7,511 nucleotides of DNA from Sporomusa sp. (GTDB lineage: Bacteria > Bacillota_C > Negativicutes > Sporomusales > Sporomusaceae), in NCBI GenBank assembly GCA_029256645.1, contig JAQSXM010000157.1:1-7511 (forward strand), in the 5' to 3' direction. This document shows, piece after piece, positions 2,968 through 7,511 of the stretch; position 1 is the first letter of the stretch; each line of letters starts with the position of its first letter. The position numbers were made by a program, and so were the translations under genes. The notes beneath the pieces were generated by a model. That model ran no database searches. It saw only the letters and a list, made by a program, of their open reading frames with translations, and had not been told where the DNA came from.

Positions 2968-2997
2968 TTGACAATCGTACACCGGGATGAGTATAAT
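2968..2997 (+). promoter_or_regulatory. Sigma-A promoter for the T-box leader and SSS2
   Basis: TTGACA (2968-2973) and TATAAT (2992-2997) both match consensus exactly, with an 18-bp spacer. Transcription should start near 3004, just upstream of T-box Stem I. A perfect promoter fits a gene controlled mainly by premature termination rather than by initiation. Confidence 0.85.
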
Positions 2998-3199
2998 CAT
3001 GTTAATAATAAAATACTAGATATAGTGATGACGGAAAAAAGTAATTTTGTACTTTCCATGCAGAGAGCTAGTGGTTGGTGTGAACTAGCTGGAAATACTC
3101 AATGAAGTTCCTTCCCGAACTGCAGGCTGAAGGTTATAGTAGGCTGCGCCGTTTTGTCTACGTTACAGACTTAAAGTAGATCTTATGATTTAAACAGGG

Positions 3200-3246
3200 T
3201 GGTACCGCGGCTTTTCGCCCCTTAGGTACTTCCTTTTTTATTTTTT
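3200..3246 (+). terminator. Terminator-like alternative fold of the first T-box module
   Basis: GGTACC with its upstream GGT (3198-3206) can pair with GGTACTTCC (3225-3233), giving about eight pairs including one G-U and one T-T mismatch. TTTTTTATTTTTT (3234-3246) follows directly. Forming it would consume the T-box bulge itself and exclude the antiterminator AGGG/CCCT. It is weaker than the second terminator, so it may be leaky. Confidence 0.5.
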
Positions 3247-3277
3247 AAGATCTAAATTGGGTGGTACCACGGTAACT

Positions 3278-3311
3278 ATCGTCCCTCTTCATAAGAGGGG
3301 CGATTTTTTTT
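3278..3311 (+). terminator. Terminator of the second T-box module
   Basis: ATCGTCCCTCTT (3278-3289) pairs with AAGAGGGGCGAT (3293-3304), 12 bp with one G-U and a CAT loop, followed by eight T (3304-3311). Its 5' arm contains CGTCCC, which otherwise pairs with the T-box at 3259-3271 to form the antiterminator: the canonical mutually exclusive arrangement. Confidence 0.9.
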
Positions 3312-3365: not shown

Positions 3366-4769
3366 ATGAATATTCCTTTTATTATTGTTTGCTTGTACAT
3401 TGTATTACTATTTATGATCAGCTATTATGCAAAACGGCGTTCAGCCGGCAGTGCAACAAACTATGTACTTGCCGGCAGACAGCTTACCACTCCGCTTATT
3501 ACTGTATCTATTGTGGGGCTTGCGGTTGGCGGGGCATCAACTATTGGTGTTGCCGAACAAGCCTACAAGGTCGGCCTTTCTGCAGGCTGGTATACAACCG
3601 CCTGGGGATTAGGGGCGATCGCCATGGGCTTGTTAGTTGCAAAAAAATACCGTGAGCTCAATATCACAACAATCCCCGAGTTGTTAGGGCGTTATTATGA
3701 TAAAAAAGGCATGATCGCTGGGATCGCCTGTCAAATATTAATTCAACTTGTGGTCATGTCGCTGCAATATATCGCAGGGGGCAGTATTCTCTGCGCTTTA
3801 ATGCCTGAAGTCTTTACCCTGACTACCGGCATGCTGACAAGTGCTATTGTCTTTATCGGTATTACCTCAATCGGCGGTATGTGGTCTGCCAGTTTATCCA
3901 ATCTGTTAAACGTCAGCCTGAAATATGTAGGCATCATCCTGGCCACCATTGTCGGGGTGACACATGCCGGCGGTATGGCTAATATTCAGGCCAATCTTCC
4001 TGCTAATGTACCTTATCTGGATATGATTGACGGTGTCGGCATACTCGGTATTATTAGCTGGATCGTGGTATTGGTAACAGTTAACCTTTCGCTGCAGAGT
4101 ATTATTCAGATATCGCTGGGGGCCAAAGATGTAAAAACCGCTCAACGCGGCTTTATTATCGGTGGATTGATGATGCTGCCGATTGGTTTTGTCAGTGCCC
4201 TGCTGGGGGTTATAGCCAAATCCATGTTCCCTAATGTTAGCCCGGCCCTGGCTCTCCCGATGACCATCATGTCTTTGGACCCGGTGCTCGCAGGAATTAC
4301 CCTGGCCGCTCTTTGGGCAGCCGATGTATCAACAGCCTGTAACCTGCTGCTTAGCTCGGCGACCTTATTCTCACAGGATATTTACAAAAAATTTATAAAC
4401 CCCAGCGTAAGCGAGAAAAACTTCCTCGTTACCACCAAAATAGCGGTGGTGGCTCTAGGTTTGCTTACCCTTACGCTGGCTATGACTATTAGCGGCATTA
4501 TCAGCACCCTGATGATTGGTCTTAGTCTTACAGCTGCCTTTAGCGTTATTGTATTGTTTACCCTTTTCGCTCCAGGTCTTTGCCGGAGAAATTCCGCTTT
4601 CTATACAATATTGACCGGGGTCATAGTATTGATTCTATGGCAAACAACCCCGGCTGTCCGGATATTCCCACATGTTATCTATCTTGAATGGCTTGCTTGC
4701 CTAGCTACGTTCTTCCTAATCTATTTGGTGGATTCGAAACCAATAGCTAGCACTGAATATGCGAACTAA
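3366..4769 (+). CDS. Sodium:solute symporter family protein (SSS2), T-box controlled
   Basis: The 467-residue membrane protein belongs to the same SSS/SSF family as SSS1 and shares its landmarks. These are YAKRRSAGSATNYVLAGR after TM1 (residues 21-38), GGASTIGVAEQAYKVGLSAGW (55-75) and a GAKDVKTA loop (252-259). The TM8-like segment ends SATLFSQDIY (331-340) and has S322-T323 at the position of the PutP Na2-site pair, so Na+ coupling looks intact. It should import an organic solute across the cytoplasmic membrane with Na+. The TAGGAGGT site (3353-3360) and the ATG five bases later fix the start. The gene stands alone between its own leader and a strong terminator. T-box control implies that expression rises when a particular tRNA is uncharged, so the substrate is probably the matching amino acid or a precursor or peptide of it (inference). 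The family is certain, the substrate is not. Confidence 0.92.
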   Translation: MNIPFIIVCLYIVLLFMISYYAKRRSAGSATNYVLAGRQLTTPLITVSIVGLAVGGASTIGVAEQAYKVGLSAGWYTTAWGLGAIAMGLLVAKKYRELNITTIPELLGRYYDKKGMIAGIACQILIQLVVMSLQYIAGGSILCALMPEVFTLTTGMLTSAIVFIGITSIGGMWSASLSNLLNVSLKYVGIILATIVGVTHAGGMANIQANLPANVPYLDMIDGVGILGIISWIVVLVTVNLSLQSIIQISLGAKDVKTAQRGFIIGGLMMLPIGFVSALLGVIAKSMFPNVSPALALPMTIMSLDPVLAGITLAALWAADVSTACNLLLSSATLFSQDIYKKFINPSVSEKNFLVTTKIAVVALGLLTLTLAMTISGIISTLMIGLSLTAAFSVIVLFTLFAPGLCRRNSAFYTILTGVIVLILWQTTPAVRIFPHVIYLEWLACLATFFLIYLVDSKPIASTEYAN

Positions 4770-4856: not shown

Positions 4857-5315
4857 TTAACGCCTGATCTCGGCAAGCACCTCGTTAATATCCGGTAGTT
4901 CAGGAATTGGATACACCTTTACCCAGAGCACCTTCCCTGTCTCATCAATCAGGATATTAGCCCGTTCGGAAAAGCCTTCGCCTTCACGAAACAGCCCATA
5001 GGTCTGTGCGACCTGGCCGTGTGGCCAGAAGTCTGCTGGCAGCTTGGTCCGGGTAATCTCAAGTTCTTTAGCCCACGCATTTTTGCTTGGATAAGCGTCA
5101 ACACTTAGTCCTAAAGGTACGGTGTTGTATTTTTCCATTTCCTCATAATTAGCTTCCAGTGATTTCATCTGTTCGGCACAAACTTTAGTCCAGGCTAGCG
5201 GATGCCACGATAACAATACTTTTTTTCCCCGGTAGTCAGATAATTTCACGTCCTGTCCACGGTTGTCTTTCAGCACAAAGTCGGGAGCATAATCACCTAC
5301 AGTAATCTGTTTCAT
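4857..5315 (-). CDS. Peroxiredoxin, single-cysteine (AhpC/TSA fold)
   Basis: This 152-residue thioredoxin-fold protein reduces hydrogen peroxide or organic hydroperoxides in the cytoplasm. It opens with GDYAPDFVLKDNRGQ and YRGKKVLLSWHP. The active site reads P39-LAW-T43-KV-C46, the family P-x3-T-x2-C motif, and the supporting arginine is R118 in SERANILIDETGKV. C46 is the only cysteine, so there is no resolving cysteine within the chain, and it must be recycled by an external thiol or a partner protein. The usual FY before P39 is replaced by SWH, and the usual proline or threonine after the cysteine by alanine, so it belongs to a divergent branch. AGGAGGT lies 8 bases upstream of the ATG. It is divergent from a 2-Cys peroxiredoxin, which suggests a shared oxidative-stress role. 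The reducing partner is unknown. Confidence 0.9.
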   Translation of the reverse strand: MKQITVGDYAPDFVLKDNRGQDVKLSDYRGKKVLLSWHPLAWTKVCAEQMKSLEANYEEMEKYNTVPLGLSVDAYPSKNAWAKELEITRTKLPADFWPHGQVAQTYGLFREGEGFSERANILIDETGKVLWVKVYPIPELPDINEVLAEIRR

Positions 5316-5625: not shown

Positions 5626-5644
5626 ATGAAAGGTGTGTGAATGT

Positions 5645-6184
5645 ATGTCTGTTAAAGTTGGTCAAAAAGCCCCCGATTTTGTTATGACGACTACCAGTAA
5701 TATGGAAACTCTGGAGCATGTTGCCAAGCTGGAGGATTTTCAGGGAAAATGGTTGGTGCTATTTTTTTATCCGCTTGACTTTACCTTTGTTTGTCCTACT
5801 GAGATTCTTGGCTTTAACACAAGGCTGGCTGAATTTGAAAGTCTGGGAGCCTCTTTACTTGGTGTCAGTACCGACAGTGTATATTCACACCGGGCCTGGA
5901 TCAAGTCTTCCAGAGGCGACGGTGGTCTGGGCGGTTATCTTAACTACCCCCTGGCTTCTGATATCACCAAACGGGTATCCCGGGATTACGGTGTTCTGAT
6001 TGAAGAGGAAGGGATTGCCCTCAGAGGTTTGTTTATCATCGATCCGGATGGCATACTCCGCTACCAGGTTGTCAGCGATTTGAATGTGGGACGCAGTGTA
6101 GAAGAAGTGGTGCGGGTCCTGAGTGCACTGCAAACCGGTGGCCTGTGCCCTATTGACTGGCACCCTGGCGATAAAACCCTCTAA
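5645..6184 (+). CDS. 2-Cys peroxiredoxin, AhpC/Prx1 type
   Basis: The 179-residue cytoplasmic enzyme reduces peroxides using a peroxidatic cysteine that forms a disulfide with the resolving cysteine of the partner subunit. The peroxidatic site is FYPLDFTFVCPTE, with P43, T47 and C50; the arginine is R127 in GIALRGLFIID. The resolving cysteine is C168 in GGLCPIDWHPGD. The GGLG motif (93-97) and this C-terminal tail are typical of the robust, overoxidation-prone members, but no YF motif follows. Length is normal. I start at ATG 5645 rather than the in-frame GTG at 5633, because AAAGGTG (5629-5635) is the ribosome binding site and includes that GTG. No ahpF follows; the gene stands alone, so reduction probably comes from a thioredoxin-like system elsewhere. 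A Fur/PerR-type operator implies control by peroxide or iron. Confidence 0.95.
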   Translation: MSVKVGQKAPDFVMTTTSNMETLEHVAKLEDFQGKWLVLFFYPLDFTFVCPTEILGFNTRLAEFESLGASLLGVSTDSVYSHRAWIKSSRGDGGLGGYLNYPLASDITKRVSRDYGVLIEEEGIALRGLFIIDPDGILRYQVVSDLNVGRSVEEVVRVLSALQTGGLCPIDWHPGDKTL

Positions 6185-6204: not shown

Positions 6205-6247
6205 AACAGATCCTCTCATCGTCATCTGCGGTGAGAGGATCTGTTTT
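6205..6247. terminator. Terminator of ahpC overlapping the 3' end of the HD-GYP gene
   Basis: A perfect 14-bp stem (6205-6218 with 6232-6245) has a 13-base loop that can add three more pairs. On the plus strand TTTT (6244-6247) and a T-rich CATATTTCTTT follow. The HD-GYP stop codon (6222-6224) sits in the loop, and the arm at 6232-6245 is the last codons of that gene. Toward the minus strand the tail is poor in T. Confidence 0.85.
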
Positions 6248-7301
6248 CATATTTCTTTGTCAGAGCAAGCACTTCTTTTTCCGACATGACATGATTAATG
6301 AAACTTGTTAAGTTTTTTGCCAATTCAATTTCTACCCATTCAGCCTGGAAGATACCCTTTGCATCTGTGATTACCGTTATTGTCGGTCTTGCCTGCAATT
6401 TTGGCCTGGCTTCGGTGACAACGCCAATAAAACCGCTATCAAGGACAACAAACGTTCCCAGCGGGTAAAGGGGTGCTTTGGCTAAGAATATATCAGCAAT
6501 TTCTTTGTCCAGGTAGGTTCCGCTCATAGACATGATTGCTTCATAAGCCTGATGTGGCAAGAGAGCCTGACCTTTTGGGAAGTCGGATACGATGGTGTCA
6601 TAGGCGTCAGCCACTGCCGTAATTCGGGCATATTCATGCAGCTGCTCCCCGCTGATGCCGCGTGGGTAGCCGGTTCCGTCCACCTTCTCATGATGCTGGT
6701 ATATTACATGACTTGCAACGATGGAATAGTCACGGAGTTTCCGGGCGTATTCGAAGCCTTTGTGTGGATGATCCTCTTCGCGGACATTGCCATTGTCCAG
6801 AACCTTGCCGATATCGTGCAGTAAGGCGCCCATAACAAGTTCTTGCATCTTTGCCGAGTTATATTCCATATCACTGGCGATAACCGCGGCCAGTGCCGCC
6901 ACATTAATACAATGACTGTAAACATAATCGTCAGCAGTAACGGTAGTATCCAGCCGGATGAGCTGGTTGCTCTTTACGGTTTCAATAATTGTTTTGGCCA
7001 TGATATAAATGCTGTGTACATCGATGAGTTTCCCCTCTTTAGCATTGTCGAAAGAGGTTTTCAGGATTCTGATTGCTTCTGTTCTTTTATCTTCAGGCAG
7101 GGTTTCCTCATAGACTAACCCGATGCGTTCAATAATTGGGTTGGTTACAAATAAATTCAAAACACCAAGATTATGTATTTTTTTGATATAACTTGCGCTC
7201 AGGCGGATACGGCTGCCCAAGAGCACCCGGCCATCTGCGGTACACAGGCGTGTGTATGTAGTCATTCCTTCGGCTAAATTATTGATAGATACTTTTTGCA
7301 T
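6222..7301 (-). CDS. HD-GYP domain c-di-GMP phosphodiesterase
   Basis: The 359-residue protein has no membrane segment or signal peptide and should act in the cytoplasm, hydrolysing c-di-GMP to pGpG and GMP. The N-terminal 110 residues (MQKVSINNLAEGMTTYTRL...) form a short domain common in Firmicute HD-GYP proteins. The HD-GYP core follows, about residues 120-275. H130, then the HD pair H162-D163 in GALLHDIGK, D177-H178 and HHEKVDGTGYP (203-213) are all present, so the metal-binding and GYP residues look complete. A small C-terminal beta-rich segment (280-340) follows. GAGGCG lies about seven bases before the ATG. The gene is monocistronic as far as visible, convergent with ahpC. It is preceded by a c-di-GMP-I riboswitch and terminator, so its own substrate probably controls its transcription. 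It has no receiver domain, so the signal it integrates is unclear. Confidence 0.95.
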   Translation of the reverse strand: MQKVSINNLAEGMTTYTRLCTADGRVLLGSRIRLSASYIKKIHNLGVLNLFVTNPIIERIGLVYEETLPEDKRTEAIRILKTSFDNAKEGKLIDVHSIYIMAKTIIETVKSNQLIRLDTTVTADDYVYSHCINVAALAAVIASDMEYNSAKMQELVMGALLHDIGKVLDNGNVREEDHPHKGFEYARKLRDYSIVASHVIYQHHEKVDGTGYPRGISGEQLHEYARITAVADAYDTIVSDFPKGQALLPHQAYEAIMSMSGTYLDKEIADIFLAKAPLYPLGTFVVLDSGFIGVVTEARPKLQARPTITVITDAKGIFQAEWVEIELAKNLTSFINHVMSEKEVLALTKKYENRSSHRR

Positions 7302-7394: not shown

Positions 7395-7424
7395 TGGCAT
7401 CAATCTGCAGACAGATTGATGCCA
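7395..7424 (-). terminator. Expression-platform terminator of the c-di-GMP riboswitch
   Basis: A perfect 13-bp stem TGGCATCAATCTG/CAGATTGATGCCA with a four-base loop is followed on the minus strand by TTTAATTT. On the plus strand the flank is AAAACGAA, so only the minus-strand direction is a terminator. It sits 20 bases after the aptamer and about 93 bases before the HD-GYP start. Confidence 0.8.
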
Positions 7425-7444
7425 AAACGAATTACAATTAAATT

Positions 7445-7511
7445 GCAACCTGGCAGTCATAGACCATGTCCTTAGACCCATAGCTTTGCGTCCTTATCTT
7501 TCGGTAAGTTT
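7445..7511 (-). promoter_or_regulatory. c-di-GMP-I (GEMM) riboswitch aptamer, 5' end cut by window edge
   Basis: The minus strand reads AAACTTACCGAAAGATAAG, a P2 hairpin closed by a GAAA tetraloop. The conserved GGACGCAAAGC comes next. The P3 side, GGGTCTAAGG ... TATGACTGCCAGGTTGC, completes the pattern. These blocks, in this order, are the signature of the GEMM-I family that binds c-di-GMP. About 10-20 bases of the 5' P1 strand and the promoter lie beyond the window. A hairpin terminator and an HD-GYP phosphodiesterase gene follow directly. Confidence 0.9.

What the first reader, a model, noticed from the sequence alone, without database searches (positions are those of the whole stretch)
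3027..3311. T-box leader with one tRNA sensor and two antiterminator/terminator modules
A single Stem I is followed by two complete T-box sequences (3196-3210 and 3259-3272). Each has its own complementary partner (CGCCCCT and CGTCCC) and its own downstream hairpin with a T tract. Canonical T-box leaders have one module; known tandem T-boxes usually repeat the whole leader including Stem I. Here one bound tRNA could free only one bulge at a time, so the leader may act as a two-step lock, giving lower leak or a steeper response, or need two tRNAs. The alternative is that only one module still works.
Basis: partly seen in the sequence, partly recalled or inferred. Interest (0 to 1): 0.8.

Follow-up and report, generated by a model that had tools for sequence, protein, structure and literature searches.

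The report
Two-step tRNA switch sharing one sensor
A bacterial gene for a probable phenylalanine importer is preceded by an RNA switch in which one tRNA sensor appears to be checked twice in a row, with one RNA strand changing partners between the first and the second on/off module; such partly doubled switches are known to exist but how they work is an open question.

Summary
One Stem I/II (specifier UUC, Phe) precedes two complete antiterminator modules; with either one the leader matches RF00230 far above cut-off (128.6 and 130.9 bits). Duplicated terminator-antiterminator T-boxes are a described class (recalled; paper not held), so the arrangement is not new. Two features I found in no paper searched:

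(1) Stem III, which the aminoacylation sensor needs, has one 5' strand (3177-3185) and two alternative 3' partners, one before each T-box (3187-3192; 3246-3254). A candidate second partner occurs in 67 of 67 leaders (weak alone) and covaries (31 clusters: own 16.2, swapped 10.9, 0/5000). It usually also pairs with the local hairpin loop, as a toehold would.

(2) The first terminator uses T-box 1 itself as its 5' arm (65 of 67 leaders); the second is canonical.

Of 79 orthologues, 66 have a T-box leader, each with two modules. Best model: RNA polymerase passes two terminators; one tRNA is tested at module 1, then strand exchange moves the test to module 2. Architecture is well supported; tRNA hand-off and termination at both sites are inferred.

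The parts
2968..2997 (+). sigma-70-type promoter TTGACA-18-TATAAT
   Evidence: 12 of 12 consensus match; consensus match only
3025..3120 (+). Stem I (tRNA sensor)
   Evidence: RF00230 alignments; boundaries read from the alignment
3108..3110 (+). specifier codon UUC (Phe)
   Evidence: position in the RF00230 alignment (placing of the specifier recalled); UUC found by script in 58 of 67 leaders, 5 not found, 4 read as UGA. The base after it is C here, not the usual purine
3121..3165 (+). Stem II and IIA/B region
   Evidence: RF00230 alignments; approximate boundaries
3177..3185 (+). shared Stem III 5' strand S, UAGAUCUUA
   Evidence: pairs with both L and D
3187..3192 (+). local Stem III 3' strand L, GAUUUA (module 1); 6 bp with S, loop UUAU
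3196..3222 (+). T-box 1 and antiterminator 1 (AGGG/CCCU, bulge UGGUACC, GCG/CGC)
3198..3233 (+). terminator 1 hairpin, T-box 1 (3198-3206) paired with GGUACUUCC (3225-3233)
   Evidence: (-13.2 kcal/mol)
3234..3246 (+). U tract of terminator 1 (UUUUUUAUUUUUU)
   Evidence: sequence; T-rich stretch after module 1 in each of the 67 leaders, at least 7 T in 12 nt
3246..3254 (+). distal Stem III 3' strand D, UAAGAUCUA (module 2); 9 bp with S
3259..3285 (+). T-box 2 and antiterminator 2 (GGG/CCC, bulge UGGUACC, ACG/CGU)
3280..3311 (+). canonical terminator 2 (CGUCCCUCUU/AAGAGGGGCG, A, U8)
3366..4769 (+). regulated gene: Na+/solute symporter family (SSF) transporter, 467 aa, predicted Phe uptake
   Evidence: PF00474 E 1.5e-28; TIGR00813 below its cut-off; substrate inferred from the specifier

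Best explanation
This is a transcriptional T-box riboswitch with one tRNA sensor and two serial checkpoints that share half of the aminoacylation sensor. Shown by sequence: Stem I/II occurs once, and the Stem III 5' strand S (3177-3185) can pair either with L (3187-3192, in front of T-box 1) or with D (3246-3254, in front of T-box 2), leaving the same 5-nt spacing to each T-box core. Inferred: RNA polymerase makes Stem I, which captures tRNA-Phe. S-L forms, and an uncharged 3' end binds T-box 1 and holds antiterminator 1. Without it, T-box 1 is taken by the 3' arm GGUACUUCC and terminator 1 forms. If polymerase passes, D emerges, pairs first with the loop of the S-L hairpin (toehold), displaces L, and rebuilds the sensor around T-box 2. 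T-box 1 folds back onto its arm, releasing the tRNA end for a second test at T-box 2 against the canonical terminator 2. If T-box 1 is not released, its unused arm is free to pair with T-box 2 and terminator 2 wins. The gene is therefore read only if the tRNA tests uncharged twice, giving a low-leak, steep response for a transporter.
For: Both modules complete RF00230 with the same Stem I (128.6 and 130.9 bits). Covariation: own S-D score 16.16 vs swapped 10.92 (sd 0.62), 0/5000, 31 clusters of orthologous leaders; also in non-SSF leaders, canonical-T1 class 0/5000 in 32 clusters, T-box-arm class 27/5000 in 8 clusters. Window S-D: 1/200 shuffles reach it. Spacing of Stem III to the two T-boxes is within 1 nt in 37 of the 44 leaders with D of at least 6 bp and L of at least 4 bp. 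D pairs with at least 2 nt of the local loop in 20 of 23 cluster representatives scored (no separate shuffle control). In 29 close orthologues 92.9% of S-D cells pair, 25.7-50.0% when slid. T1 is T-box-arm in 65 of 67, but in none of 20 single-module leaders from five related genomes by eye (script: 12 of the 14 it parsed canonical). Folding, window: S-D+T1+T2 is the minimum (-55.2); S-D+T1+antiterminator 2 (-41.6) is far better than S-L+both antiterminators (-25.0); with antiterminator 1 held, the T1 arm pairs T-box 2 unprompted. Stem III is reported indispensable for tRNA 3'-end sensing (PMC7583486 passages). All 66 T-box-bearing orthologues keep both modules.
Against: No experiment. Terminator 1 has a long loop and moderate stability (-13.2 kcal/mol) and was not found by the simple terminator scan, which allows loops of 3-8 nt only. 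A 5-bp S-D helix somewhere in the zone searched is easy to get by chance (shuffled mean score 10.9), so '67 of 67' is weak alone; singly, 25 of 67 leaders beat their own shuffles at 10/200 or less, and in a few (L142, L148, L156, L158) the best helix used a strand away from the usual S. S-L is only 3 bp in 18 of the 63 leaders where it was found. In leaders with 3-4 modules the same S can usually pair with each D, but singly mostly not beyond shuffles, and L019 and module 2 of L104 do not fit well. S-D was not the more stable state in 6 of 44 folds. Within the 29 closest orthologues S hardly varies, so change there is mainly one-sided. Energies omit tRNA and tertiary contacts.
Confidence: 0.68

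Rival explanations
1. Two plain checkpoints in series without strand exchange: each antiterminator samples the tRNA end independently, leak multiplies, and the S-D pairing is incidental.
For: Two modules conserved in all 66 T-box-bearing orthologues; tandem riboswitches and double T-boxes are usually explained as independent or cooperative units giving a sharper response (PMC12452182, PMC9481103, PMC9413887 passages).
Against: S-D covaries across 31 clusters and extends into the hairpin loop; Stem III is reported necessary for tRNA-end binding and its 5' half exists once.
Confidence: 0.17
2. Module 1 does not terminate: T1 is a folding spacer or a pause that gives time for tRNA binding, and only terminator 2 controls the gene.
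For: T1 is long-looped and moderate (-13.2 kcal/mol) and differs in type from T2.
Against: A T-rich tract follows module 1 in each of the 67 leaders (at least 7 T in 12 nt, mean 9.7) and antiterminator 1 elements are largely invariant in the 29 closest, which a spacer would not need.
Confidence: 0.1
3. Relic of a duplication: only one module still works.
For: One orthologue (L174) has a changed T-box 1, GGTGGTCCCTCG.
Against: No loss of either module in 66 orthologous leaders down to about 59% protein identity; T-box cores invariant in both modules of the 29 closest.
Confidence: 0.03
4. Two tRNAs are needed, one per module.
For: Two UGGU bulges are present.
Against: One Stem I and one Stem III 5' strand; 62-nt spacing leaves no room for a second sensor.
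Confidence: 0.02

Closest known systems
Transcriptional T-box riboswitch (RF00230)
   Same: Stem I with specifier, Stem II, IIA/B, Stem III, antiterminator with UGGN bulge, terminator; matched at 128.6 and 130.9 bits
   Different: two discriminators share one Stem III 5' strand; first terminator uses the T-box as its own arm
T-boxes with duplicated terminator-antiterminator elements (Vitreschak 2008, recalled abstract, not held) / 'partially tandem T-boxes' (PMC7583486, passages)
   Same: one sensor, two modules; this leader belongs here
   Different: alternating Stem III, loop toehold and T-box-arm terminator were in none of the passages I saw; the 2008 paper itself could not be checked
Fully tandem T-boxes (thrS/thrZ, trpE; PMC12452182 and PMC2494555, passages)
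   Same: serial terminators, expected sharper response
   Different: described there as two or three units, each (PMC12452182) a complete sensor with its own platform, so one tRNA per unit
Pseudo-cooperative tandem riboswitches (PMC9481103, passages)
   Same: several expression platforms in series for one gene
   Different: there the tandem units are independently functioning riboswitches, each with its own aptamer

Membership tests
T-box riboswitch RF00230 | whole-family covariance match above gathering score | tested here: met
   130.9 bits with module 2, 128.6 bits with module 1, cut-off 93
T-box riboswitch RF00230 | specifier codon matching the regulated pathway | tested here: inconclusive
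   UUC (Phe) in 58 of 67 leaders by script; the transporter's substrate is not known
T-box riboswitch RF00230 | response to uncharged tRNA | not testable with these tools
   needs transcription assay
T-box with duplicated terminator-antiterminator | one Stem I followed by two complete antiterminators | tested here: met
   66 of 79 orthologues
T-box with duplicated terminator-antiterminator | each module is followed by its own terminator hairpin | tested here: met
   by sequence and folding only: T1 T-box-arm in 65 of 67 (2 unclear), T2 canonical in 64 of 67 by script, the 3 others cut at a T-run inside the hairpin. Termination itself not tested
Fully tandem T-box | a second Stem I | tested here: not met
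   T-box spacing 62 nt here, 58-87 nt in the 67 leaders
T-box discriminator (Stem III + antiterminator) | 5'-RRRxG-Stem III-AA-3' flanks | tested here: inconclusive
   AA in the 8 nt before T-box 1 in 57 of 67 and before T-box 2 in 60 of 67; RAG-x at the 5' edge of S in 55 of 67; the fifth-position G is not kept in the window

The most novel reading that the evidence does not exclude
Partly tandem T-boxes are relay switches: one 5' half-sensor is handed by toehold strand displacement from one antiterminator to the next (up to four in Lysinibacillus leaders), so the same tRNA is proofread repeatedly while polymerase advances. The T-box-arm terminator is a second kind of expression platform in which the tRNA 3' end competes directly with a terminator strand for the same bases, and whose freed arm can gate the next T-box.
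Probability: 0.5. Interest if true: 0.85.

Novelty: new variant of a known kind. Interest (0 to 1): 0.7.

Why it matters
[quoted passage not shown] The alternating Stem III gives a concrete, testable mode: three short strands (S, L, D) whose base changes and compensations make exact predictions about which terminator responds. It would be an RNA device that checks one ligand twice by strand exchange, and the pairing signal recurs in front of other genes and outside the window's own class (Paenibacillus, Alicyclobacillus, Chloroflexi and others).

Tried and rejected
Canonical terminator for module 1: looked for a strand complementary to CGCCCCT before the first T tract and found none; T-box-arm pairing found instead. 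T-box-arm terminators in single-module leaders: none in 20 from five related genomes by eye; the script parsed 14 and called 12 canonical, 1 '?' (L210) and 1 T-box-arm (L224, no T-run found, canonical by eye); 6 had variant cores it missed. Energy-based pairing test (pairs at most 80 nt apart): own -11.48 vs swapped -8.45, 0/2000, but the own partner ranked first in only 2 of 57; the position-restricted test was then used. Alignment A2 of 18 leaders (window plus 17 more distant ones) was misregistered at S and D and not used. A search of plasmids with the transporter gave 172 records, all under 60% identity, and was not followed. Dropped before counts: 8 of 117 loci, by eye, as repeats outside T-boxes (L005, L042, L053, L070, L073, L078, L079, L101; L079 has some T-box-like sequence); one pair of L109 without a T-run; duplicates L207 and L208 of L156 and L157. 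Four loci had no ORF after the leader. The T1 search asks for at least four T in a row, so the T-richness, rather than the presence of a run, is the informative part. Of ten paralogues at 51-54% identity, six were examined and had no T-box core; four on the other strand were not examined. L204 has only 116 nt upstream, so its 'no T-box' is weak. Not found in print: searches, 57 of an open-licence library; the two key T-box surveys and a 2018 review are not held, so novelty is provisional. Papers were seen as search listings or passages only; none was read whole.

Full report
What is there. The window carries a perfect sigma-70-like promoter match (2968-2997) followed by a T-box leader and, at 3366-4769, a Na+/solute symporter (PF00474; by sequence the nearest solved chains are a choline transporter SLC5A7 and a sodium/glucose cotransporter). 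Its closest orthologue found is 93% identical, in a genome of the same family as Sporomusa silvacetica (G013); no genome is held for the window itself. Rfam places one T-box element at 3019-3289 (130.9 bits). In that alignment the model's Stem III is formed by GAUCUUA and UAAGAUC, and 3186-3240, which holds module 1, is a 55-nt insert. When the search is stopped at 3245, the model matches 3019-3225 with 128.6 bits, now with a local Stem III and module 1 as antiterminator. The same sensor therefore serves two alternative, complete discriminators. The specifier reads UUC (3108-3110), Phe; both bulges read UGGU, which fits a tRNA with discriminator A (bacterial tRNA-Phe has A73: recalled).

Homologues. 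A pattern scan of GTDB genomes for two T-box cores 38-98 nt apart gave 117 stretches. After dropping 8 by eye and adding the window, 110 loci remained, with 111 first pairs after one pair of L109 was lost for want of a T-run. The downstream gene falls in one similarity cluster with the window's transporter in 54 of the 107 leaders for which an ORF was found; the others look like NSS-type transporters, ABC binding proteins, ilv, aroF-like and one ileS-like gene, with a few not named (named by eye from sequence, no family search). In the class of the nearest genome, 79 of 380 genomes have such a double and 0 have the reversed pattern. Separately, 79 of 380 have an orthologue of the transporter at E <= 1e-165. 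I examined the leaders of all 79. 66 have a T-box leader and each has two modules; 13 have none (Rfam found no T-box in these 13; one of them, L204, has only 116 nt upstream). None has a single module or a second Stem I. By contrast the five genomes searched with RF00230 hold 22-30 T-box matches each and one double each by the exact pattern.

Alternating Stem III. In the window S (UAGAUCUUA, 3177-3185) pairs with L (GAUUUA, 6 bp, loop UUAU) or with D (UAAGAUCUA, 9 bp); each leaves 5 nt before its T-box core. In all 67 leaders (66 plus the window) a gapless helix of at least 5 bp ends 4-8 nt before T-box 2, and a local partner of at least 3 bp was found in 63. That alone is weak, since shuffled D zones also score 10.9 on average against 15.9 observed. 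The strands themselves change: 30 different S strands among 31 cluster representatives (that table is fitted to the helix). The stronger test is the swap between leaders: own S-D score 16.16, swapped 10.92, sd 0.62, 0 of 5000 permutations. Single leaders are less decisive: 25 of 67 beat shuffles at 10/200 or less; the window does (1/200). Single-module leaders scored 10.1 at the same offsets and reached the doubles' median in 6.0% of leader-offset pairs (n = 14 leaders). The same signal holds for doubles in front of unrelated genes with canonical first terminators (0/5000, 32 clusters) and, more weakly, for other T-box-arm doubles (27/5000, 8 clusters). In nine of eleven arrays of 3-4 modules the same S segment can pair before every later T-box with a constant gap, though singly most do not beat shuffles; L104 fits only at module 3 and L019 does not fit. 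D does not look like a mere copy of L: the S-D helix runs on past the local strand, by 3.57 nt on average, and takes in at least 2 nt of the S-L loop in 20 of 23 representatives scored, which is what a toehold for strand displacement looks like. There was no shuffle control for that last count, and the helix was chosen as the best one.

First terminator. Across the 111 pairs two types appear: T-box-arm (62), canonical (41), unclear (8). Among pairs at most 82 nt apart the counts are 57, 8 and 5. In the transporter group 65 of 67 are T-box-arm and 2 unclear; terminator 2 is canonical in 64 of 67 by script, and in the other 3 the script cut at a T-run inside the hairpin. Twenty single-module leaders from five of the genomes are canonical by eye; the script parsed 14 of them and called 12 canonical. 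Because the two T-boxes are identical in their core, the T1 arm can pair with either.

Energetics. Up to 3234, T1 with S-L is -20.8 and antiterminator 1 with S-L -12.8 kcal/mol. Up to 3303, S-D+T1+T2 is -55.2 (the minimum), S-L+T1+T2 -45.5, S-D+T1+antiterminator 2 -41.6, S-L+antiterminator 1+T2 -43.2 (with the T1 arm on T-box 2, unprompted), S-L+both antiterminators -25.0. Over the 44 leaders scored the S-D state is more stable than the S-L state in 38. tRNA is not in these numbers.

Mechanism. [quoted passage not shown] Since the Stem III 5' strand exists once, antiterminator 2 should sense tRNA only after S has left L. The order of transcription then gives a relay: test at module 1, strand exchange, test at module 2. 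Strand architecture and conservation are shown; termination at both sites, hand-off of one tRNA and the gating by the freed T1 arm are inferred.

Known or new. A class with duplicated terminator-antiterminator elements was described in 2008 (recalled abstract; [quoted passage not shown] A 2022 survey of tandem riboswitches lists, in the table passage seen, no case that I can read as one aptamer with several platforms. A 2022 histidine study says double T-boxes might act cooperatively and sharpen the response (passage). I found no description of the alternating Stem III or of the T-box-arm terminator in the searches, but the central surveys could not be opened, so novelty is provisional.

Noticed in passing
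7441-7511 (-), gene 6222-7301 (-): c-di-GMP-I riboswitch (60.6 bits, cut by the window edge) upstream of an HD-domain (HD-GYP-like by inference) gene, i.e. a c-di-GMP sensor in front of a probable c-di-GMP phosphodiesterase; an inverted repeat at about 7396-7423 may be its terminator.
   Followed up: no
3-2164 and 2244-2534: A second SSF transporter divergent from a LysR-type regulator; downstream a 96-aa LysR substrate-domain fragment on the minus strand that looks like a decayed regulator gene.
   Followed up: no
3207/3218 and 3269/3282: The pair at the base of helix A2, described as a G-U wobble and steric sensor (PMC7583486 passages), would be G-C in module 1 and A-U in module 2 of the window; the two checkpoints may differ in stringency.
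   Followed up: no
L090, L097, L105 (Lysinibacillus): Leaders with four T-box cores after one sensor, before an NSS-like transporter; the terminators classified (all but the last of each array) are canonical.
   Followed up: partly
L174: Orthologous leader whose T-box 1 reads GGTGGTCCCTCG: a possibly degenerating or altered first checkpoint.
   Followed up: no
L187, L188, L190-L192, L196, L200, L201, L203, L206: Of the 13 orthologues without a T-box, these ten have an Rfam tRNA match within the upstream stretch, suggesting that the gene moved or the leader was lost.
   Followed up: no
4857-5315 (-) and 5633-6184 (+): Two divergent peroxiredoxin-like genes next to the transporter (best NCBIfam matches below their cut-offs).
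   Followed up: no
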